Virus record (IMG/VR): IMGVR_UViG_3300038701_001032
Coordinates: 1 to 35,257 of that record
Length of the DNA stretch: 35,257 nt
From: a virus
Strand: one strand, 5' to 3'
Notes under the pieces: generated by a model
Told to the model about the DNA's origin: nothing
Seen by the model: the letters and a program-made list of their open reading frames with translations, nothing else
Databases searched by the model: none
Position numbers and translations under genes: made by a program
In this document: positions 1-32,837 of the stretch, piece by piece
How positions within the stretch are numbered: position 1 is the first letter of the stretch
How the letters are laid out: every line of letters starts with the position of its first letter

Positions 1-110
1 TATAAGGGCCTAAACAGATTGTACACAACAACAGTATTACCATAATTTGCCCGAAAAGCCCGTAAACATTAGGATACAGAACGTTTGACCATAATTGGCC
101 GAACAAACGG
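1..110 (+). repeat. Left-end iterated motif, candidate transposase-binding sites
   Basis: Three related copies can be read. L1 at 1-28 starts TATAAGGGCC and contains GTACACA. L2 at 41-70 starts CATAATTTGCC and contains CGTAAACATT. L3 starts at 91 with ATAATTGGCC followed by GAACAAACGG. L1 and L2 both align to the reverse complement of 35157-35185 (TATAATCGCC, AAAACC, CGTACACATT). Iterated sites of this type at both ends are what MuA-family transposases bind. The binding role is inferred from position and repetition. Confidence 0.55.
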
Positions 111-474
111 AATGTGCAGCCATAAGCATTTAATCCGCATTTAAGCAACGTTTAAATATGCAGGCCACCACAGTTAGCCTGCAAACGCTGTAACGCCCGT
201 ATACAGCGAGATATAGCCGTTAAACACCTTCTTTACAAAGTGACTTTATTGTGTACTACAACAATTGGGTGAAACGCCCTCTTCGTATGTTGGTTCTACA
301 GTTGGTTCTACAGTTGGTTCTACATCTGACCGTTAAAACAGTACCCGTTAACCCCCTGTTAATGGCTTGAAAAACGGCTAAAAGTGCATGAAATGAACGA
401 TAAACACCCCCTTAATACATGGTTGGCGCATTAGTCTTTGCGTTGTAAGTGCTTGAAAGCGTGACTATTAAGCA
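111..474. other. Non-coding left-end region
   Basis: No open frame with a convincing start and composition is seen here. The stretch holds a further GTGTAC/ACAACAAT-type motif near 248-266, similar to the one at 20-34, and the 12-base triplicate at 289-324. It separates the left end from the terminator of the lysogeny operon and may carry additional transposase or host-factor sites. Confidence 0.4.
289..324 (+). repeat. Three tandem copies of a 12-base unit
   Basis: The unit GTTGGTTCTACA is repeated three times without a mismatch. It lies between the left end and the lysogeny terminator, outside any gene. It could be a protein-binding array or simple slippage. Confidence 0.9.
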
Positions 475-499
475 CAAAAAGAGGCCAATTACGGCCTCT
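475..499 (-). terminator. Rho-independent terminator of the repressor/T9SS-cargo operon
   Basis: AGAGGCC (480-486) pairs with GGCCTCT (493-499) around a 6-base loop. On the minus strand the stem is followed by five T residues (475-479). It lies about 50 bases after the stop of the minus-strand T9SS gene, which is where the leftward operon should end. Confidence 0.8.
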
Positions 500-550: not shown

Positions 551-1273
551 TTATCTGATGATTAAACGCTCTGCAAATTGCCCGTTAACATGTACCAAGT
601 ATGTGCCAGCTACCATGCCAGATACTGGTAGTGTAATGGTGCCAACATCATTGGTTGGTACAGAGCTTACTACTTGCCCGTGCATATTGATTAACTCAAT
701 GCTGCCCGGTTCTGTTATTTCGAAGGATACCATCTCGCTTGATGGATTTGGATACATGTTAAAACGGCTCCGAGTATCTGGTTCATCAACATCTGTCTGT
801 AATGGCCATGTGCCACCTAAAGAATAAACCTCTGACACGGAAGATATACTTATTATAAGCTTAGGGTCTCCAGCCACTTCTGCCACTACAGCACTACAGT
901 TGTCACATGATTTGGTAAGAAGTTGCGTGCCACTTTCTTTGTAAACTCGAATGATTCGATTGTTCGTTCCTTCTTCATAGTAGTACGCCAAGTATTCCAA
1001 GTCGCTATCAGTGTTAAATAATCCAGTGCCATAGTATTGCGGTGGAATATACATCACATGACCGGGGATGGTCGGAATGTTTATGGTTCTAATCAACTGA
1101 TGATTCGGGCTGTAATGCTTCCATACCTGACTCACGGAGTTAAATACTTGGTATCCTTCCATTCCCCAATAAAGGGTGCTTGCATTTCCGTCACTGTACG
1201 TATGCTCCAGTGTTATCTGCGCGCTTGATGTAGCTGCCGCTAAAATAGCAAGTGATGTAAGTAGCTTTTTCAT
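551..1273 (-). CDS. T9SS-sorted secreted protein carried by the prophage
   Basis: This 240-residue protein starts with a Sec-type signal peptide (MKKLLTSLAILAAATSSAQ, cleavage near residue 19). It ends in a type A T9SS sorting domain of about 75 residues, with the typical RFNMYPNPSSE opening, a GTYLVHV strand and a C-terminal RLIIR. Such proteins cross the outer membrane by type IX secretion and are released or attached to the surface. The middle part (about 20-165) has short beta-strand-like repeats and a CDNC motif, and I recognise no domain in it. The start codon overlaps the repressor stop (ATGA at 1270-1273), so the two are probably co-transcribed and translationally coupled, and hence expressed in the lysogen. 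This suggests lysogenic conversion of the host surface; the actual function is unknown. Confidence 0.85.
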   Translation of the reverse strand: MKKLLTSLAILAAATSSAQITLEHTYSDGNASTLYWGMEGYQVFNSVSQVWKHYSPNHQLIRTINIPTIPGHVMYIPPQYYGTGLFNTDSDLEYLAYYYEEGTNNRIIRVYKESGTQLLTKSCDNCSAVVAEVAGDPKLIISISSVSEVYSLGGTWPLQTDVDEPDTRSRFNMYPNPSSEMVSFEITEPGSIELINMHGQVVSSVPTNDVGTITLPVSGMVAGTYLVHVNGQFAERLIIR

Positions 1274-1677
1274 TGCTTCTGGTTTAGTTTATCGTTAATG
1301 ATTTTTAGTTCTTGTTGCAAGTTGGTTAGTTGCTCATTGACATCATTCATCCACTCATCCATTGATAATCGTTGAACGGTATTAGTTTCTCGACTAGCAG
1401 CATTATACGTTGTATCTTCTTCTTGAGCTAACAATTGTCTGTAATGATCTTTCTCATCCTTCTTAAACCACGTACCTGAGCCAGTTATGAGCCATTCTAC
1501 TCGTATTTCTGGTGCAAACTCTAGGAATTTAAGAATATTCTCCTCGCTAACTCCGCGATTTTTATCTAGCATTCCGTTAGATATGCCAGATTCCTTGTAA
1601 AATTGATACTTACTAACGCCTTGATACTTAAGGTATTGCAGCATTCTTTTTTTGATATGAGTTTTTTTACTCTCCAA
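1270..1677 (-). CDS. Prophage repressor, HTH (XRE-like) with C-terminal coiled coil
   Basis: The 135-residue protein has an N-terminal helix-turn-helix of the lambda-repressor/XRE type (about residues 8-65). It contains SKYQFYKESGIS and the VEWLITGSG segment common in Bacteroidota phage repressors. Residues about 100-135 are a likely coiled coil for oligomerisation (NEQLTNLQQELKIINDKL). No LexA/CI-type self-cleaving peptidase domain is present, so induction by RecA-driven autocleavage is unlikely. It is divergent from the Cro/Ner-like gene at 1741, with a palindromic operator between them. The role as immunity repressor is inferred from family, orientation and operator. Confidence 0.8.
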   Translation of the reverse strand: MESKKTHIKKRMLQYLKYQGVSKYQFYKESGISNGMLDKNRGVSEENILKFLEFAPEIRVEWLITGSGTWFKKDEKDHYRQLLAQEEDTTYNAASRETNTVQRLSMDEWMNDVNEQLTNLQQELKIINDKLNQKQ

Positions 1678-1680
1678 AAC

Positions 1681-1712
1681 TTGGAATCATAGATTAATAG
1701 CTCATATATTTG
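1681..1712 (+). promoter_or_regulatory. Early rightward promoter, Bacteroidota type
   Basis: TATATTTG at 1705-1712 fits the Bacteroidota -7 consensus TAnnTTTG exactly. A TTG at 1681-1683 lies 21 bases upstream, an acceptable spacing for the -33 element. The box lies inside the spacer of the palindrome at 1693-1722 and fires toward the transposition operon. Confidence 0.65.
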
Positions 1713-1722: not shown

Positions 1723-1740
1723 TCAAAGTTAGTAAATCAA

Positions 1741-2447: not shown

Positions 2448-3026
2448 ATGGCTCAAAACGAATTTAGAGAGATACTTCAACGTCTTTGCAAGACATGGAT
2501 ACCCGGCTCTGTAGTCGGTCAGATTACGGCAGTCGATGGTACAGACACGTGTACGGTAGAGCCAGTAGATGGCGGTGCAACACTTTACAAGGTTCGCCTT
2601 CGTGCTACTATTGATGGCAATGATGAAGGCGTGGTAAGTATTCCAGCTGTTGACAGCTTCGTAATTGTATCGCCCATCAATCACAACGACAATCAACTTT
2701 TTGTGTCTCGGTTCAGCAAGGTCGAAAGCTGGCACGTTAAGACTGAGAACAGTACCAGTTTACAAGTAAACGATGATGGTACTGTATTTCTGAACGGCAA
2801 CAACTTCGGTAGCCTCATTAAGATTGACGACATAGTTGATAGGCTCAATTCTATTGAGGATGCAATAAGCGGACTTGTGGACGACCACAATAGCCATATC
2901 CATGATGTGATTGACCCAGTCTCTGGAACCTTAGTGGCTGACCCGCCAACGGTACCGTCTACGCAAAACGCAGGAACAACTACAGTATCCGCAATCGAAA
3001 ACGACAAAGTTCAACACGGAGGATAA
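2448..3026 (+). CDS. Baseplate spike-like protein (Mu gp45/P2 gpV type), displaced into the early region
   Basis: This 192-residue protein has an OB-fold-like N-terminal part (about 15-90: PGSVVGQITAVDG, a run of short strands, then DSFVIVSPINHNDNQLFVSRF). A short strand-rich section and a helix (about 125-145) follow. The C-terminal region has an HxH pair (SHIHDV) and proline-rich VADPPTVPS. Cell-puncturing spikes of contractile tails have this architecture, with histidines binding iron near the tip. The late baseplate cluster (30356-35076) lacks a spike gene, which supports the assignment. The stop overlaps the transposase start (TAATG at 3024-3028). Placement ahead of the transposase is unusual for a late structural gene. 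Confidence 0.65.
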   Translation: MAQNEFREILQRLCKTWIPGSVVGQITAVDGTDTCTVEPVDGGATLYKVRLRATIDGNDEGVVSIPAVDSFVIVSPINHNDNQLFVSRFSKVESWHVKTENSTSLQVNDDGTVFLNGNNFGSLIKIDDIVDRLNSIEDAISGLVDDHNSHIHDVIDPVSGTLVADPPTVPSTQNAGTTTVSAIENDKVQHGG

Positions 3027-5065
3027 TGCTACAAGTGCAAGGAAATAAGGTTGGAGTTCCGGTTCATTTACTTGTGCCAGATTTTTTTCCATCAGAAAAA
3101 GCTTTGTACCAAAAGCTTTGGCGAGACAAGAAGTTGAACTACGGAATGAAACGCCTGCAACGTGGCTGCTATGGCAATTCTTTGCTTGTAGACTTTGATA
3201 CTCTTGATAAAAAAGTGCAAGAGCAAATTGGCGACCCACGCAAACCAGACCACCTATTAGACAACTATTACGAGGTTGATACCGAGGCCGTGGAGTTCTA
3301 CCACAACTGGCAGTACCCGGATGGCAGCTACCTCAAGCCAGATAGCATTGAGCAGTACATCATCAACGCAAGTGTGATGAAAGCTATTTTCAGACTTCGC
3401 GATGCGCGAATTGCTGAACGACAAAGCAAGAACGGCAGCCTGCAAGGCATCACTCAAACGCTTTGCACAGATGCCAACACATACCAGGAGCACCTGCAAG
3501 CAAAGGCAGGCATGAGACACAAGCTCCCAACCAATGCGCGCAGGTTCAAGCAAGCTATGACAGAATTTGAGCGCATTGGTTTCATCTCACTCATTAAGGA
3601 TGCCAAGGGCAACGCCAAAAAGAACGCTGCCAAGGTAGATGAGCAAGTGCTGCAACTACTCAACGACCTCTTTGCAAGCCAAAGCCACAAGCCAACAGCT
3701 ACAGAAGTTGCTGGTCAGTACGATGCTTTCTTGCGTGGACAGCTAGAAGTGTTCAATGCCGAAACAGGCGAGCAGTACACCACAGATGGTTACGCCAGCA
3801 TTAGCACTAGTACGGTTAAGCGATACCTGACCCAATGGCAGAGCCGTATTGCTACGCACCATGTGCGTAGTGGCGACCGACAGAAGTACATGAACAAGTA
3901 CAGCGTACACCACTCGCTCAAGCAACCAGAGTTTGCGGGCGAGATCATCTCCATTGATGACCGCCAACCACCTTTCGAGTACGAACCAGGCAAGCGTATG
4001 TGGTGGTACTTGGGCGTTGACCTCGGCAGTGAGGCCATTACCACTTGGGTACACGGCAAGAGCAAAGAGGGTATCATCCTCGATTTCTACCAGCAGATGG
4101 TACGAAATTACCACGAGTGGGGAATGCCGCTACCATACGAACTGGAGGCTGAAAGCTCGCTCAACAGTTCATTCAAAGAAACCTTCTTGCGCGAAGGTCA
4201 GATGTTTAGCCGAGTGAGGATTGAAGCCAACAAAGCAAGAGCCAAGCGTATTGAGGCGTACTTCCGCCAATTGCGCTACGGCATAGAAAAGAAGCGCGAA
4301 GGATGGCTTGCGCGTCCGTTTGCTGGCAGCGAAAGCAATCAGCTTGGCGGCACCAAGAAAACCATCATTCCTTATGATGAGCTGGTGCATCAATGTCTGC
4401 TCGACATTATGACGTGGAACAACATGGAGCACTCCAAAATCAAGGGCAAGACCCGTTGGGAAGTGTTCTTGGAGCGTCAGCATCCAGAGTTGAAACCAAT
4501 CAACCTGCGTGCTATTCTGCCAGCGTTGGGCCATAGCACCGCTACTAGCGTAAACGTTGGCATCATCCGCTTCAAGAGCCGCGAGTGGCTGTTAGGTGTA
4601 GACGGACAAGTTGCCACAGGCGATACGCTTATCCGGTTAATGAAGGGAGTGGAAGGCGAGGATATTACCATCCATTGGTTGGATAATACCGATGGCAGCG
4701 TAATGAAAGCCTACATCTACCACAACGAGCGGTATGTGTGCGAGGCGGTGCCGAAACCAGTCTACAGCCGTAGCACTATTGGTCGTACAGATGCAGATGT
4801 GGAAGCACGTGCCATTATGAGTGCCTACGCCAACACCGTTGATGGCTACCGAAAAGAAACCGTGAAAGGCTTGAACAAAGTAGCGGTACTCGATAACCGT
4901 AGCCTGACGCTCAACGATAAGTTTCAGATACCAGGAATGGCCAAGCACCGCCCAGCAGAGCAAGAACCGCAAGAGGCTGAGGTGCTGCCAGAACTGCCCG
5001 AAGAAGAAGACTATTCAACACCCATTCAAACATCATTCAAACAAAGTTTAAAAGATAGATTCTAA
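3026..5065 (+). CDS. MuA-type DDE transposase
   Basis: At 679 residues this is close to MuA (663). The N-terminal 250 residues contain the Mu-type DNA-binding region (FPSEKALYQKLWRDKKLNYG early on). The RNase H-like core follows, with ISIDD at 308-312 giving the first acid (D311), then WWYLGVDLGS. The segment MPLPYELEAESSLN (367-380) aligns without gaps to the MuA segment holding its second Asp, and the residue there is E376. NKARAKRIEAYF supplies the final Glu (E410). A Mu-transposase C-terminal beta-barrel spans about 505-580 (VGIIRFKSREWLLGVDGQ to YVCEAVPKP). The tail is acidic, where MuA contacts MuB and ClpX. It catalyses strand cleavage and transfer during integration and replicative transposition. 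Confidence 0.93.
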   Translation: MLQVQGNKVGVPVHLLVPDFFPSEKALYQKLWRDKKLNYGMKRLQRGCYGNSLLVDFDTLDKKVQEQIGDPRKPDHLLDNYYEVDTEAVEFYHNWQYPDGSYLKPDSIEQYIINASVMKAIFRLRDARIAERQSKNGSLQGITQTLCTDANTYQEHLQAKAGMRHKLPTNARRFKQAMTEFERIGFISLIKDAKGNAKKNAAKVDEQVLQLLNDLFASQSHKPTATEVAGQYDAFLRGQLEVFNAETGEQYTTDGYASISTSTVKRYLTQWQSRIATHHVRSGDRQKYMNKYSVHHSLKQPEFAGEIISIDDRQPPFEYEPGKRMWWYLGVDLGSEAITTWVHGKSKEGIILDFYQQMVRNYHEWGMPLPYELEAESSLNSSFKETFLREGQMFSRVRIEANKARAKRIEAYFRQLRYGIEKKREGWLARPFAGSESNQLGGTKKTIIPYDELVHQCLLDIMTWNNMEHSKIKGKTRWEVFLERQHPELKPINLRAILPALGHSTATSVNVGIIRFKSREWLLGVDGQVATGDTLIRLMKGVEGEDITIHWLDNTDGSVMKAYIYHNERYVCEAVPKPVYSRSTIGRTDADVEARAIMSAYANTVDGYRKETVKGLNKVAVLDNRSLTLNDKFQIPGMAKHRPAEQEPQEAEVLPELPEEEDYSTPIQTSFKQSLKDRF

Positions 5066-5409: not shown

Positions 5410-6378
5410 ATGAATGTAACCAACGATTTCCGAGACAGTGTAATGGATGCCCTGCTCATCCGCAAGGGTAACCACCTTGGCACAGAGAAAAGCTTTGCCA
5501 CCCAATGGCAGATACCACACTCCGTTTGGAGTACGCTTAAGACCATTCGCGCAGAGCGCAAAGAAGGCAAGGATACCAGCTACTTCGGTAAGCTGAAAGA
5601 CCAAGACTGGATTCGCCTTGGCCGCGCAATGGAAGTACTCACCAACCGCAGAAAGTGGAACGTGGTAAAAACAGATGTTTTCCTAACCATCGAAGAGGAT
5701 ATCATCTTCTGTAAGGAGCACAGCAAGGCGCGCATATTCGTTGATGATTGCGCCATTGGAAAAACCTTTACCGCCAAGTACCTGAGCCGCAAGCTTCCTA
5801 ACGTCTATTACGTTGATTGCAGCCAGTGCAAGACCAAGAGCGAGTTCTTACGGCTTATTGCCATGCGCATTGGTGTAGACCACAAAGGCAGGCTAATCGA
5901 AATAACCGAAACCATCAAGTACTGGCTCAATGGAATGGATAAGCCGTTGGTCATTTTAGATGAAGCTGGCGACCTGAACCAAGCCGCATTCCTTGCCATC
6001 AAAGAACTATGGAACGCCACCGAAGGCACCTGCGGATGGTACATGATGGGGGCGGATGGCCTACGCGCTAAAATAGACCGTGGCTACAACAACAAGAAGC
6101 TCGGTTATGCCGAAATCTTTAGCCGCTTCTCAGAGAAGTACAGCAGCGTGGTTCCTAACGGCAAAGACGACAAGCGCGCCTTTTACCGCAAGCTGATTAC
6201 CGATGTGCTGTACGCCAACATGAACGAGAACGAGCGCAGAGAACTCGACCAAATTGTAAAGCGCTGCCTGGTTAACGATAACCGTGGCCGCCTTGGTGGA
6301 TTACGCAGAGCTGAATCGCTACTCATCCTCAACGCCCGACCAAACACAGACCTTTTTTCCGCACCAGCAAGAACCTAA
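5410..6378 (+). CDS. MuB-like AAA+ ATPase, target-DNA activator
   Basis: This 322-residue protein has an N-terminal HTH-like region (about 1-60; KSFATQWQIPHSVWSTL) as in MuB. An ATPase core follows, with a Walker A variant DDCAIGKT (112-119), Walker B PLVILDEAGD (179-188) and a sensor-like WYMMGADGL. MuB binds target DNA, delivers it to the transposase and gives target immunity. Position after the transposase agrees with Mu gene order, apart from the inserted DUF4406 gene. The first Gly of the usual P-loop is absent, as often in MuB and TniB-type ATPases. Confidence 0.88.
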   Translation: MNVTNDFRDSVMDALLIRKGNHLGTEKSFATQWQIPHSVWSTLKTIRAERKEGKDTSYFGKLKDQDWIRLGRAMEVLTNRRKWNVVKTDVFLTIEEDIIFCKEHSKARIFVDDCAIGKTFTAKYLSRKLPNVYYVDCSQCKTKSEFLRLIAMRIGVDHKGRLIEITETIKYWLNGMDKPLVILDEAGDLNQAAFLAIKELWNATEGTCGWYMMGADGLRAKIDRGYNNKKLGYAEIFSRFSEKYSSVVPNGKDDKRAFYRKLITDVLYANMNENERRELDQIVKRCLVNDNRGRLGGLRRAESLLILNARPNTDLFSAPART

Positions 6379-7912: not shown

Positions 7913-8346
7913 AAACCCCAACCAAATACATCCAAGCACAGCAGCGCCTTATTGAGCTGTGCGCACAGAATGAGGAATGGCTCAGCCAACTCATTTACCA
8001 CAAAGGCGTGGCGTGGCTAGAGAACCGTTACAAGAACGTGCGGCCCACAATTAACCTACTCAGCAACAGCAAAGCGTTCTGGAGCTGGTGGCGTAACCAG
8101 ATGAACTTGCAAATAGTGGAGTTCATTGAAACCATAGACCTGCACCCAGAGATGTACCATGCTGGTAAGGCTGGTTACCTCACGCCAGAGTTGCAGCAAT
8201 ACATCCTGTTGCAGTTCAGTCACTTCATCAGCACGTACCGCTGCGTGTATCCGAATGAGGTGGTGTGGAAACTTGCTGAAAAGGAAATGTACGCAGCCGT
8301 TGATGTTGAACTTCAGACCAAGCACCATGAAACTGTCAGCAAGTAA
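7909..8346 (+). CDS. Hypothetical helical protein
   Basis: The 145-residue protein is mostly helical by composition and has several tryptophans (EEWLSQL, GVAWLENRY, KAFWSWWRNQMN). It starts inside the stop of the previous gene and its end overlaps the next gene. No family is recognised. Confidence 0.6.
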   Translation: MKTPTKYIQAQQRLIELCAQNEEWLSQLIYHKGVAWLENRYKNVRPTINLLSNSKAFWSWWRNQMNLQIVEFIETIDLHPEMYHAGKAGYLTPELQQYILLQFSHFISTYRCVYPNEVVWKLAEKEMYAAVDVELQTKHHETVSK

Positions 8347-21743: not shown

Positions 21744-21930
21744 GCTTGAGGCTGTTGGGCCGTCAGCTGTTGGAGTGTTGAGTACACTTCTAGGTAATCA
21801 GCTGGGTTGGATAGAGATGGGTGCAGATGCGATGGTTGCATTTGTGCTCGGAGCAAGCGGAGCGGCAGGCGGCTACATAGTGAAAGAGAGTTTTAACTGG
21901 ATCAGTAAAAAAGTAAAATCGAGAAAATGA
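21721..21930 (+). CDS. Small membrane protein in head module
   Basis: The 69-residue protein has hydrophobic segments (AVGVLSTLLGNQLGW; MVAFVLGASGAAGGYIV) and a basic tail (ISKKVKSRK), a holin- or antiholin-like layout. It lies far from the lysozyme gene and overlaps both neighbours (23 and 4 bases). The recognised holin-like gene is at 24662, so another role is possible. Confidence 0.6.
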   Translation: MQSYLQSKLEAVGPSAVGVLSTLLGNQLGWIEMGADAMVAFVLGASGAAGGYIVKESFNWISKKVKSRK

Positions 21931-22394
21931 AAAGAGCATTTGGAATATTGATGATTGCCTTGATGGCAATTGCAGGAGTGCAAGACGCAAGCGCGCAGGG
22001 TTCTATCACTTACAGTGATGGTAAGTACTTGCAATTTGCACACCCTACATCTGACAGTATTGTAAGTCAGAAGCCGATTTTCCCAACGTATGGGAGCGCT
22101 GTATCTGCTGATGTAAGCACTGACACAGATACCATCTACGTAAACAACTTTCATACATCCATCACATTAGAGGATGTGATTGATGATGATTATGTGTTGA
22201 GCCTTTTTGCAGCACCGTATTTAACTATTGGCGCGCAAGCAGTAATAAGTGTAGAGGCCGATGCAGACGGCAGGGCTTTTACCCTGGCAGGCAATGCCAC
22301 CGGGGCCACAACAGCAGGCGACACGCTTAAACACATCAATCTATTCTATAACGGTACCAACTTTCTCATGTGTGGGGAGAGCTTGGCCGAGTAA
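21927..22394 (+). CDS. Protein with signal peptide in head module, decoration candidate
   Basis: The 155-residue protein begins with a clear Sec signal (MKRAFGILMIALMAIAGVQ, then DASAQG; cleavage near residue 23). A beta-rich body follows (DTIYVNNFHTSITLEDV, AQAVISVEADADGRAFTLAG, HINLFYNGTNFLMCG). Body and place suggest a head-decoration or fibre-tip type protein. A signal peptide on a virion protein is unexpected, since assembly is cytoplasmic. It overlaps the previous gene by ATGA. Confidence 0.6.
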   Translation: MKRAFGILMIALMAIAGVQDASAQGSITYSDGKYLQFAHPTSDSIVSQKPIFPTYGSAVSADVSTDTDTIYVNNFHTSITLEDVIDDDYVLSLFAAPYLTIGAQAVISVEADADGRAFTLAGNATGATTAGDTLKHINLFYNGTNFLMCGESLAE

Positions 22395-22431: not shown

Positions 22432-23550
22432 ATGAAAACGTTTAAAGCAATCTTCACAAATGTGCTCCTGGCCGTGTTGGTTGGTTTCGCCATGAGCGCA
22501 ACCGCTGCCACGCAAGGAATTTCCATTGATCCGATGGCAGCATCTGGCGCTGTGTTCGGTGTATCATTCACTGTCCAGACCCTAGCTTGGGGATTAAGCG
22601 CAGTTGGAGCATCAAGCTTTACTGGCGGGTTATCGCTTATGGCGTACCAAGTTGAAATTTGGCAAGACCAGTTAGTTGAGAATCTTTTCAAATATGGAAA
22701 TGAGTTTGCTCAGTTTGCTGTAAGTGCTGATGAATATGTTCTGGACGGTACGGTGGTTTACATTCCACAGGCAGGTAGCACTCCAGCGGTTACGAAAAAC
22801 AGAAACTCTTGGCCAATAACAGTTACCAGAAGAAATGATGATAAGGTATTGTATGCCTTAGATGATTTCTCAACTGATGGTACTCACATTCCTCAAATTG
22901 AGAAGTGGGAGAACAGCGTTGATAAAGTGTCGTCTGTTTTGAGAGACCATTTTGGAACGCTGATGGATCAAGCGATGGATGAGTTGCTGTACAAGTGGAG
23001 CACTTCACTGTCTGCGAATATTGTAAGAACAACTGGTACGGCAGTTTCCACCAACCTTGCGCCAAGTGCAACTGGTTCGCGTAAAATGCTTCTGAAAGAA
23101 GACATTGTAAAGCTTGCTAAGATTTTGAAGAAGAGTAAGATTAAGGGGCAGATGTATGCATCGGTTCCAACCGATATGATGAGTGAGCTGTTGGAGGATG
23201 AGGATTTCGTACTGACATCAAACAAACACATTGAGTCCATCGCTAACATGGCAGAAGGTACGGTTGGTAAATACGCAGGTGTAATTCTTATTGAGAGAAC
23301 ATCAACCACTATTTACGACAACGCTCTTGCTCCAAAAGCACCAGATGCGGTAGGCGCAACAACTGACCACCAAGCGGTTATTGGTTGGAAAGCTGAAGCT
23401 GTAGAGCGTGCGAAGGGAACCATTCAGTTTTTTGAGACACTAGGCGATGCTACGTACCAAGGAGACATTTACTCTGCGCTCATCAAAGTGGGTGGTCGTA
23501 TTCGAAGAAACGCAGGTGATGGAGTAGCGGCAATTGTACAATCAGCTTAA
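22432..23550 (+). CDS. Major capsid protein with hydrophobic N-terminal extension
   Basis: The frame gives 372 residues. From M70 (ATG at 22639, MAYQVEIWQDQLVENLFKYGNEF) the remaining 303 residues fit the length of Mu gpT (305) and read as an HK97-fold capsid (N-arm, EKWENSVDKVSSVLRDHFGTLMDQAMDELLYKW spine, AVIGWKAEAVERAKG, DIYSALIKVGGRIRR end). The first 69 residues begin with a signal-like MKTFKAIFTNVLLAVLVGFA and continue with Gly/Ala/Ser-rich hydrophobic sequence. The leader AATCAACAATAAA before 22432 is a good Bacteroidota start region, so the long form is annotated. The extension may be removed by the prohead protease or be a delta-domain substitute. Confidence 0.75.
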   Translation: MKTFKAIFTNVLLAVLVGFAMSATAATQGISIDPMAASGAVFGVSFTVQTLAWGLSAVGASSFTGGLSLMAYQVEIWQDQLVENLFKYGNEFAQFAVSADEYVLDGTVVYIPQAGSTPAVTKNRNSWPITVTRRNDDKVLYALDDFSTDGTHIPQIEKWENSVDKVSSVLRDHFGTLMDQAMDELLYKWSTSLSANIVRTTGTAVSTNLAPSATGSRKMLLKEDIVKLAKILKKSKIKGQMYASVPTDMMSELLEDEDFVLTSNKHIESIANMAEGTVGKYAGVILIERTSTTIYDNALAPKAPDAVGATTDHQAVIGWKAEAVERAKGTIQFFETLGDATYQGDIYSALIKVGGRIRRNAGDGVAAIVQSA

Positions 23551-31339: not shown

Positions 31340-31647
31340 TGGCACGAGAGCAGATAGACATATTACTCAATGACAACTTAGAGGTGCAGTTCTCCGGTGG
31401 CGACCTGTCTCTTGGAGAAAGCACGGAGCGGCACCAGCAGTTGTTGCTGTTGTATCGCCCTGGTCAGATACCATTTTTCCCGTTGGCTGGTGTAGGTATT
31501 GGTGACCAGTATCAGAACGATGCGGGTGAGCGCGAAGTGGCCCGGTTGATACAGCGTGAGTTTACGGCTGATGGTTTGACCTTTAATATACTCAGAGTGC
31601 GCAACCTTGCCACGCAGGATGTACAGATAAACGCTTATTACAGATGA
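31339..31647 (+). CDS. GPW/gp25-type baseplate wedge protein
   Basis: The 102-residue protein is of family length and has the GPW/gp25-type order: GGDLSLGESTERHQQLLLLYRPGQIPFFPLAGVGI, then AGEREVARLIQREFTADGLTF. It forms part of the inner wedge and initiates sheath. The next gene overlaps its stop by four bases. Confidence 0.7.
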   Translation: MAREQIDILLNDNLEVQFSGGDLSLGESTERHQQLLLLYRPGQIPFFPLAGVGIGDQYQNDAGEREVARLIQREFTADGLTFNILRVRNLATQDVQINAYYR

Positions 31648-32837
31648 GGGTAACGGTACAACAAGGGCAGAATATTTATGACATCGCAAAGATGTACTAT
31701 GGTGGCGTGGAGGGCGTACAGCTGCTGATTGCTGATAATCCTGAGACTATTACGGACATCCGCGATAGCATTGCTCCTGGCACGGTACTGAACATTGATA
31801 GCGACCCTGTGAATAGCGTGGTGGTGCGTCAGCTACAGAGCCGTGATGAGCGCATTCCATTAAATGAAAAGACGGTATTTGCCAACGATGATAATTACGA
31901 GTTTGATGTTTGGGAAAACATCAGCACGATACCCCTTGGCCGACCTGTAAACTGCGTGACCATAGCGAGTAATGGAGATGTGTGGGTTGGAACCAACCTA
32001 AGTGGCGTGTACAGACGCAAGTATGGCCAGACTTCTTGGATTAACTACACCACCAGTGGTTTAGGGAGTTTGGCATCAAACAGCATCCGTTCCATTATTG
32101 AAGCATCTGGTGGTGTTATATATGCTGCAACTGGTGCTGGCGTTGCGCGCTTCAACGGCTTCATGTGGAACGCTAACTACACCACTAGTGATGGCTTACC
32201 TAGCAATGACTGCCAGTGGTTGGGCGTGTATGATGGCGACTTCGTGGTTGGTACAGACACGGGCGTGAGCTTCACGGCTGACTGGAGCACCTATACGAAC
32301 TACGACAGCACCGATGCAGAATTGAATAGCGATGATGTGCGCCACGGCTTTACTGATGCGAATGGCGACCTATGGTTGGCCACGGATGCAGGTCTGAGCG
32401 TGTGGCGCTTGGCTACATCTACCGTTGACCTATATGACAACGCAGGTGGTGAGCTGCCAAGTGATGATGTGGTACATCTGTTTGGTTACAATGGCATTAT
32501 TTACGTGGCCACGGCTGCTGATGGGCTTGTAATCTATGATGGCAGCAACTGGATTACGCACGATACGAGCGGCCCTAATGCACCTAATGATGAGCCAACC
32601 TTTTTGGTTGCCAATAGCTTGGGTGTGATTTACGCTGGGTTTGAGAATACAAGCAACGGTGTGTTGAGCATTGTGCGCAGGCGCGATAGTTGGAGCGAAG
32701 AGGCTAGCAGCGCCAATAGCGATATGCCGGACGACACGGTGAAGTGCATGGCTATTGATTACGAAGACAATTTATGGATAGGCACCGCAGCGAGCGGCCT
32801 TTTTTACTATAACAAGAACATTCTGATAAATGGCTAG
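31644..32837 (+). CDS. LysM (gpX-like) fused to seven-bladed beta-propeller
   Basis: The 397-residue protein begins with a LysM-like domain (about 1-55: VTVQQGQNIYDIAKMYYGGVEG, LLIADNPE, IAPGTVLNI), the gpX-type baseplate module. From about 90 seven repeats of a G..WVGT..G-type motif can be read: NGDVWVGTNLSGV, GGVIYAATGAGV, DGDFVVGTDTGV, NGDLWLATDAGL, NGIIYVATAADGL, LGVIYAGFENTSNGV and EDNLWIGTAASGL. These match the propeller repeats of two-component sensor kinases. Seven blades suggest a complete closed propeller. It may decorate the baseplate or bind the host receptor. Confidence 0.75.
   Translation: MRVTVQQGQNIYDIAKMYYGGVEGVQLLIADNPETITDIRDSIAPGTVLNIDSDPVNSVVVRQLQSRDERIPLNEKTVFANDDNYEFDVWENISTIPLGRPVNCVTIASNGDVWVGTNLSGVYRRKYGQTSWINYTTSGLGSLASNSIRSIIEASGGVIYAATGAGVARFNGFMWNANYTTSDGLPSNDCQWLGVYDGDFVVGTDTGVSFTADWSTYTNYDSTDAELNSDDVRHGFTDANGDLWLATDAGLSVWRLATSTVDLYDNAGGELPSDDVVHLFGYNGIIYVATAADGLVIYDGSNWITHDTSGPNAPNDEPTFLVANSLGVIYAGFENTSNGVLSIVRRRDSWSEEASSANSDMPDDTVKCMAIDYEDNLWIGTAASGLFYYNKNILING

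What the first reader, a model, noticed from the sequence alone, without database searches (positions are those of the whole stretch)
551..1677. Prophage-carried T9SS cargo protein translationally coupled to the repressor
The gene after the repressor encodes a signal peptide and a type A T9SS sorting domain, and its ATG overlaps the repressor stop. The operon terminator at 475-499 closes this two-gene unit. The layout predicts that every lysogen displays or secretes this protein, which would be lysogenic conversion through the type IX system. Seen: signal, sorting domain, overlap, terminator. Known: T9SS is restricted largely to Bacteroidota. Inferred: expression in the lysogen and surface role.
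Basis: partly seen in the sequence, partly recalled or inferred. Interest (0 to 1): 0.75.

Follow-up and report, generated by a model that had tools for sequence, protein, structure and literature searches.

The report
Phage repressor operon with secreted cargo
A Mu-like virus of an unidentified Bacteroidota bacterium carries, directly behind the gene that keeps it dormant, a gene for a protein marked for export through the host's type IX secretion machine, and a second, distantly related virus has a gene of the same family in the same place, so dormant viruses may be decorating or changing the surface of their hosts.

Summary
ORF 551-1273(-) has a signal peptide obeying the Bacteroidetes Q-rule and a T9SS type A sorting domain (TIGR04183 36.8 bits, cut-off 23). 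Its ATG overlaps the repressor stop (ATGA), and a terminator (480-499) closes the unit. A Bacteroidota -7 promoter element precedes the repressor, as in 77 of 113 related repressors (5 expected). Closest relatives lack the gene: it is an accessory gene (moron). The same cargo family recurs 4 bp behind an unrelated CI/S24 repressor in a distant Mu-like phage (L174), and next to a terminase in L173; chromosomal homologues occur in about 2% of sampled Bacteroidota genomes. Best reading: repressor-coupled lysogenic-conversion gene using the host T9SS. Expression, secretion and function are inferred; surface exclusion of other phages is my guess. Phage-encoded T9SS cargo was reported before (Cryophage, 2020); a place in the repressor operon was not found in the literature searched.

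The parts
551..1273 (-). T9SS cargo gene: signal peptide (1-18), about 150-aa middle domain predicted mostly beta (low-confidence model), T9SS type A C-terminal sorting domain (173-239)
   Evidence: family alignment
1270..1677 (-). short HTH repressor, TTG start, no S24 domain; stop overlaps the cargo ATG (ATGA)
1724..1731 (-). TAACTTTG, candidate -7 promoter element of the repressor-cargo unit
   Evidence: same element upstream of 77 of 113 related repressors vs 5.0 expected; consensus TAHHTTTG from PMC6847099
1705..1712 (+). TATATTTG, candidate divergent -7 element of the early (ner-A-B) unit
480..499 (-). intrinsic terminator of the repressor-cargo unit
289..324 (.). three tandem copies of GTTGGTTCTACA, a left-end element shared with related Mu-like phages
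34..117 (+). two imperfect copies of ACCATAATTNGCC, candidate transposase-binding sites near the left end; a related TTTTTGCCCGAAA motif is seen twice at the left end of L007
1741..1986 (+). small Ner/HTH-like gene opening the early unit
   Evidence: phrog_1468 E 0.006 (weak)
3026..5065 (+). MuA-type transposase
   Evidence: phrog_310 E 7.5e-38
5410..6378 (+). MuB-type AAA ATPase
   Evidence: phrog_296 E 5.9e-30

Best explanation
A lysogenic-conversion gene (moron) sits in the immunity operon of a Mu-like phage of Bacteroidota. A chromosomal-type T9SS cargo gene was captured between the repressor and the left-end repeats. It is transcribed from the repressor promoter, translated by reinitiation at the ATGA junction, exported by Sec (Q-rule signal peptide), carried across the outer membrane by the HOST type IX system through its type A sorting domain, and anchored or released there. 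Because the gene shares the repressor's transcript, it should be made in the lysogen and fall silent when lytic growth shuts the repressor off. Shown here: gene anatomy, its place inside the phage, overlap, promoter and terminator motifs, homology to chromosomal T9SS cargos, and recurrence behind another repressor. Inferred: expression, secretion, benefit. My guess for the benefit, at about 0.3, is a changed cell surface that hinders adsorption of competing phages, i.e. surface exclusion added to repressor immunity. Adhesion or another host-fitness effect is nearly as likely.
For: T9SS domain and signal peptide. ATGA overlap and terminator. TANNTTTG on the repressor strand within 120 bp upstream in 77 of 113 repressors vs 5.0 expected; window copy at 1731-1724, one of only 10 in the window. 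Triple tandem repeat behind the repressor: strict criterion 15 loci vs 0 of 297 control segments; looser 32 of 97 vs 3 of 234. It is 981 bp away in the window, 258 after removing the cargo, and 55-404 bp in most others. The same shift is seen where unrelated genes fill the slot (L141 1348 to 301, L149 801 to 273, L005 758 to 353; the last two have only two repeat copies). L174: CI/S24 repressor (phrog_4 E 8.8e-20), stop 7957, cargo ATG 7962, TIGR04183 33.1 bits, with MuA and MuB on one side and the phage structural block starting 46 bp beyond on the other. Cargo family in chromosomes: 5 of 395 genomes by tblastn, 8 of 395 with a full-length profile match (my count). Phage copies do not group together in the tree (0% of bootstraps), as separate captures would give.
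Against: No expression or secretion data. Host unknown, so a working T9SS in it is assumed. No close relative of the window was found, so conservation within a lineage cannot be tested. The tree has long branches and three phage rows, so separate captures are not proved. The second and third phage copies rest on one contig each. Structure models are too poor to name the middle domain (pLDDT 51 and 54).
Confidence: 0.68

Rival explanations
1. The gene is a host gene (or host DNA) at the prophage edge, not part of the phage.
For: It is the leftmost gene of the record; its relatives are mostly chromosomal.
Against: ATGA overlap with the repressor; left-end repeats lie beyond it; in L007 the phage-like repeats begin about 300 bp left of the same element, next to a host-like gene, which puts the phage end near window position 1; in L174 a homologue is enclosed by phage genes on both sides.
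Confidence: 0.05
2. The gene is phage-encoded but is a lytic-cycle or virion-related protein (for example a secreted enzyme or lysis helper), with its place behind the repressor incidental.
For: Phage morons can act in either cycle; L173 has a family member near the terminase genes.
Against: Transcribed away from the early unit, in the repressor unit, in both Mu-like cases; no link to tail or lysis genes in the window; a T9SS type A domain sends proteins to the cell surface or medium, not to virions.
Confidence: 0.12
3. A neutral passenger: captured host gene with no present benefit, expressed or not.
For: Rare in relatives; sequence diverged (24-30% identity to other members).
Against: Open frame of 240 codons with signal, sorting domain and family-conserved residues intact; a gene of the same rare family stands behind the repressor of a second, distantly related phage (MuB 23% identity, MuA barely alignable).
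Confidence: 0.15

Closest known systems
Cryophage T9SS cargo genes (Nat Commun 2020, PMC7468147)
   Same: Phage-encoded proteins with T9SS type A sorting domains, proposed to use the host T9SS.
   Different: Those are an endoglucanase, a glycoside hydrolase 39 and a PA14 protein in variable islands; the passages read do not describe a repressor operon or lysogeny.
T9SS sorting domains on crAss-like phage contigs (Viruses 2019, PMC6949934)
   Same: Bacteroidetes phage genes with T9SS sorting domains near BACON-domain genes.
   Different: Upstream of the head section; no repressor link stated.
Immunity-operon lysogenic-conversion genes such as lambda rexAB behind cI (own knowledge)
   Same: Accessory gene co-transcribed with the repressor, so made by the lysogen.
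   Different: Rex acts inside the cell; this product carries an export signal for the outer surface.
Morons of Mu-like phages of Pseudomonas aeruginosa (PMC4378225)
   Same: Single accessory genes inserted in otherwise conserved Mu-like genomes; morons in general include lysogenic conversion genes.
   Different: No T9SS cargo there (own knowledge); the slot described here is on the repressor's 3' side.
Chromosomal T9SS cargo family of Bacteroidota (L166-L172, L179, L180, L184)
   Same: Signal peptide followed by Q, QITLEHTY-like start of the mature protein, LFNxD-like motif, type A sorting domain.
   Different: On chromosomes without phage modules nearby; some have three copies of the middle domain.

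Membership tests
T9SS type A cargo | C-terminal sorting domain above the curated cut-off | tested here: met
   TIGR04183 36.8 vs 23; PF18962 33.7 vs 27
T9SS type A cargo | N-terminal Sec signal peptide | tested here: met
   By inspection and a crude hydropathy score (2.4); Gln after the site as in the Q-rule (PMC10653852). No SignalP run.
T9SS type A cargo | Secretion through a host T9SS | not testable with these tools
   Host genome unknown; no experiment possible
Mu-like (transposable) phage | MuA and MuB genes behind a divergent repressor/ner switch | tested here: met
   phrog_310 and phrog_296; divergent promoter elements
Mu-like (transposable) phage | Transposase-binding end repeats at both ends and a target duplication | tested here: inconclusive
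   Best repeat shared by both ends scores 13, equal to the maximum of 60 shuffles; host junction not seen
Lysogenic-conversion moron | Accessory: absent from related phages | tested here: met
   No comparable gene in the closest relatives; 0 of 50 related virus records have TIGR04183, though many are fragments
Lysogenic-conversion moron | Located inside the phage | tested here: met
   Left-end triple repeat lies beyond the gene
Lysogenic-conversion moron | Expressed from the repressed prophage | tested here: inconclusive
   Only motifs: shared unit with the repressor, -7 element, terminator
Lysogenic-conversion moron | Changes a host phenotype | not testable with these tools
   Needs a lysogen

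The most novel reading that the evidence does not exclude
Temperate phages of Bacteroidota have repeatedly captured one family of T9SS cargo into the repressor operon as a two-layer immunity unit: the repressor blocks superinfecting genomes inside, while the secreted cargo coats or alters the T9SS-dependent cell surface and blocks adsorption outside.
Probability: 0.2. Interest if true: 0.85.

Novelty: new variant of a known kind. Interest (0 to 1): 0.62.

Why it matters
It would show that a dormant phage can change the outer surface of Bacteroidota cells through the host's own type IX system, with the gene wired to the maintenance of dormancy. T9SS carries adhesins, gliding proteins and enzymes, and mutations in gld/spr (T9SS) genes gave phage resistance in Flavobacterium columnare (PMC9233685), so a prophage-made cargo is well placed to affect phage adsorption and surface traits. 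The comparison also defines a cargo slot between repressor and left end in Bacteroidota Mu-like phages, where other accessory genes can be looked for.

Tried and rejected
Single-sequence scans of viral contigs with the cargo, repressor and MuA found no relatives. No related plasmid; only one weak phage hit (E 0.2). AlphaFold2 gave poor models with one and three sequences (pLDDT 51.2, 53.6). The Foldseek search listed many beta-propellers (NHL, WD40, BtuG2) but at E above 0.02 and TM about 0.2, so no fold is claimed. I did not hand chromosomal homologues from the genome search to the structure tool because its stated rule does not list that source. Sequence profile vs PDB matches only around the sorting domain. 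Terminal repeats by pairwise comparison were not significant alone, so the location argument rests on the triple repeat. Gene neighbourhoods of chromosomal homologues showed no phage modules. A search for close kin of the L174 transposase returned only L174 itself. The sigma-70-type scan is not informative for this phylum.

Full report
What is there. The window is a whole virus record of 35,257 bases, a Mu-like phage: MuA-type transposase 3026-5065 (phrog_310 E 7.5e-38), MuB-type ATPase 5410-6378 (phrog_296 E 5.9e-30), a small HTH gene 1741-1986 with weak repressor/Ner similarity, and a short HTH repressor 1270-1677(-). Behind the repressor, on the same strand, lies ORF 551-1273 of 240 aa. Its ATG (1273-1271) overlaps the repressor stop (1272-1270) in the sequence ATGA. 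It starts with a signal peptide followed by Gln, the Bacteroidetes Q-rule (PMC10653852), and ends with a T9SS type A sorting domain that passes both curated cut-offs. A terminator hairpin with a T-run begins about 50 bp beyond its stop.

Promoter. The Bacteroidota -7 element TANNTTTG (PMC6847099) occurs only 10 times in the window (28 expected), and two of these lie in the 63-bp gap between repressor and early gene, pointing apart: TAACTTTG 1731-1724(-) and TATATTTG 1705-1712(+). In related phages the element lies on the repressor strand within 120 bp upstream of 77 of 113 repressors; 5.0 are expected (some loci are near-copies). So the repressor-cargo unit has a likely promoter and a likely terminator, and its two genes overlap. 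Expression itself was not measured.

Is the gene inside the phage? An alignment of MuB brought in 80 viral and 80 genomic loci. In many of them three tandem copies of a 12-13 bp unit (GTTGGGGTTACA-like) follow the repressor on the side of the left end. With at most two mismatches they are found in 15 loci, window included, and in 0 of 297 control segments; with at most four mismatches in 32 of 97 loci and 3 of 234 control segments. The usual distance from the repressor stop is 55-404 bp; a few loci lie further out. In the window it is 981 bp, and 258 bp once the 723-bp cargo is taken out. Other slot-fillers show the same: L141, with a 1047-bp HSDR_N-type gene, 1348 to 301; L149, 801 to 273; a P. 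gingivalis phage (L005), 758 to 353; the last two have two repeat copies only. In L007, the closest relative by MuA (52%), a host-like reading frame starts near 1228 and runs away from the phage, phage-like repeats (TTTTTGCCCGAAA, twice) begin near 1301, and a similar triple unit (GTGGTACAACA-like) lies near 1592, about 300 bp further on; the window shares TTTGCCCGAAA near 46. Window position 1 is therefore probably close to the phage's left end, and the cargo gene is inside. Pairwise end-to-end repeats alone were not significant, and no host junction was seen.

An accessory slot. The closest relatives have no comparable gene behind the repressor, and 0 of 50 related virus records carry a T9SS domain (many are fragments). 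About ten related loci have a co-directed gene there, mostly unrelated to one another: a lipoprotein (L104), two signal-peptide proteins (L102, L158), a membrane protein and a 165-aa protein with the same 4-base overlap (L153, L125), a ClpP-like protease (L139 and L046, homologous), an HSDR_N protein (L141) and others. For L102, L104 and L158 I have not shown that the gene is inside the phage.

Recurrence. A profile of the cargo family found two more phage-borne members in IMG/VR. In L174 (a 40.9-kb Mu-like phage record) a CI/S24 repressor (phrog_4 E 8.8e-20) ends at 7957 and a T9SS cargo (TIGR04183 33.1 bits) starts at 7962; beyond it, 46 bp away and on the other strand, is a phage gene of unknown function (phrog_6911), then a tail-completion and a tape-measure gene. 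The rest of the record shows the terminase and tail block adjoining the cargo, so the gene is enclosed by phage genes. MuB is 23% identical to the window's, MuA barely aligns and the repressor is a different type. In L173 a member (40.4 bits) lies at the contig edge followed by terminase genes. A second scan with a broader profile gave the same two records.

Origin of the cargo. Chromosomal relatives occur in 5 of 395 sampled Bacteroidota genomes by tblastn and in 8 of 395 as full-length profile matches (my count of the long matches; the 183-genome tally there is dominated by the sorting domain). They share the signal peptide, the QITLEHTY-like start, an LFNxD-like motif and the sorting domain, with one or three middle domains, and have no phage modules nearby. 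In a tree of 11 members the three phage copies do not group (0% of bootstraps), though branches are long. Separate captures from a host family are the simplest reading. Cargo G+C is 0.43 against 0.50 for MuA and MuB.

Function. The middle domain matches no Pfam family above its cut-off, the profile matches solved structures essentially at the sorting domain, and the models are too poor for a fold. Whether the product is displayed or released, and what it does, is inference. Mutations in gld/spr genes of the T9SS make Flavobacterium columnare phage-resistant (PMC9233685), so the T9SS matters for phage entry there; that makes surface exclusion a reasonable guess, not a result.

Known before. Cryophage carries three T9SS cargo genes and was called a unique occurrence (PMC7468147); T9SS domains were also noted on crAss-like contigs (PMC6949934). 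Morons of Mu-like phages are well known (PMC4378225). Full-text searches for T9SS with lysogenic conversion or prophage gave no report of a T9SS cargo in a repressor operon among the titles and passages I read; the library is not complete. I therefore rate this a new variant of a known kind.

Noticed in passing
window 289-324; also L087 6915-6953, L024 949, L086 6502, L006 311, L018 517, L027 451: A conserved triple tandem repeat of 12-13 bp between repressor and left end in Bacteroidota Mu-like phages; function unknown (transposase, enhancer or regulator binding are possible).
   Followed up: partly
window 31644-32837 (+): Tail-region protein with an N-terminal LysM-like part followed by a two-component-regulator-type propeller; best NCBIfam match is PorZ, a T9SS component (NF052228 E 8.8e-13, below its cut-off).
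   Followed up: no
window 21927-22394 (+); L208 11894-12361 (-): A 155-aa protein with a Q-rule signal peptide next to the putative capsid gene; the L174 phage has a protein of the same length with a signal peptide in its structural block, without sequence similarity. The window's putative major capsid protein (22432-23550) also starts with a signal-like stretch.
   Followed up: partly
window 1270-1677 (-): The repressor is short and lacks the S24 peptidase domain found in longer relatives, so induction by self-cleavage is unlikely.
   Followed up: no
L139 4984-6192, L046 1250-2467, L141 5979-7025, L153 6178-6717, L125 6203-6700, L104 811-1461, L158 2549-3160, L102 5955-6626: Other genes directly behind the repressor in related loci, two of them with the same 4-base overlap; a set worth screening for defence or exclusion functions.
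   Followed up: partly
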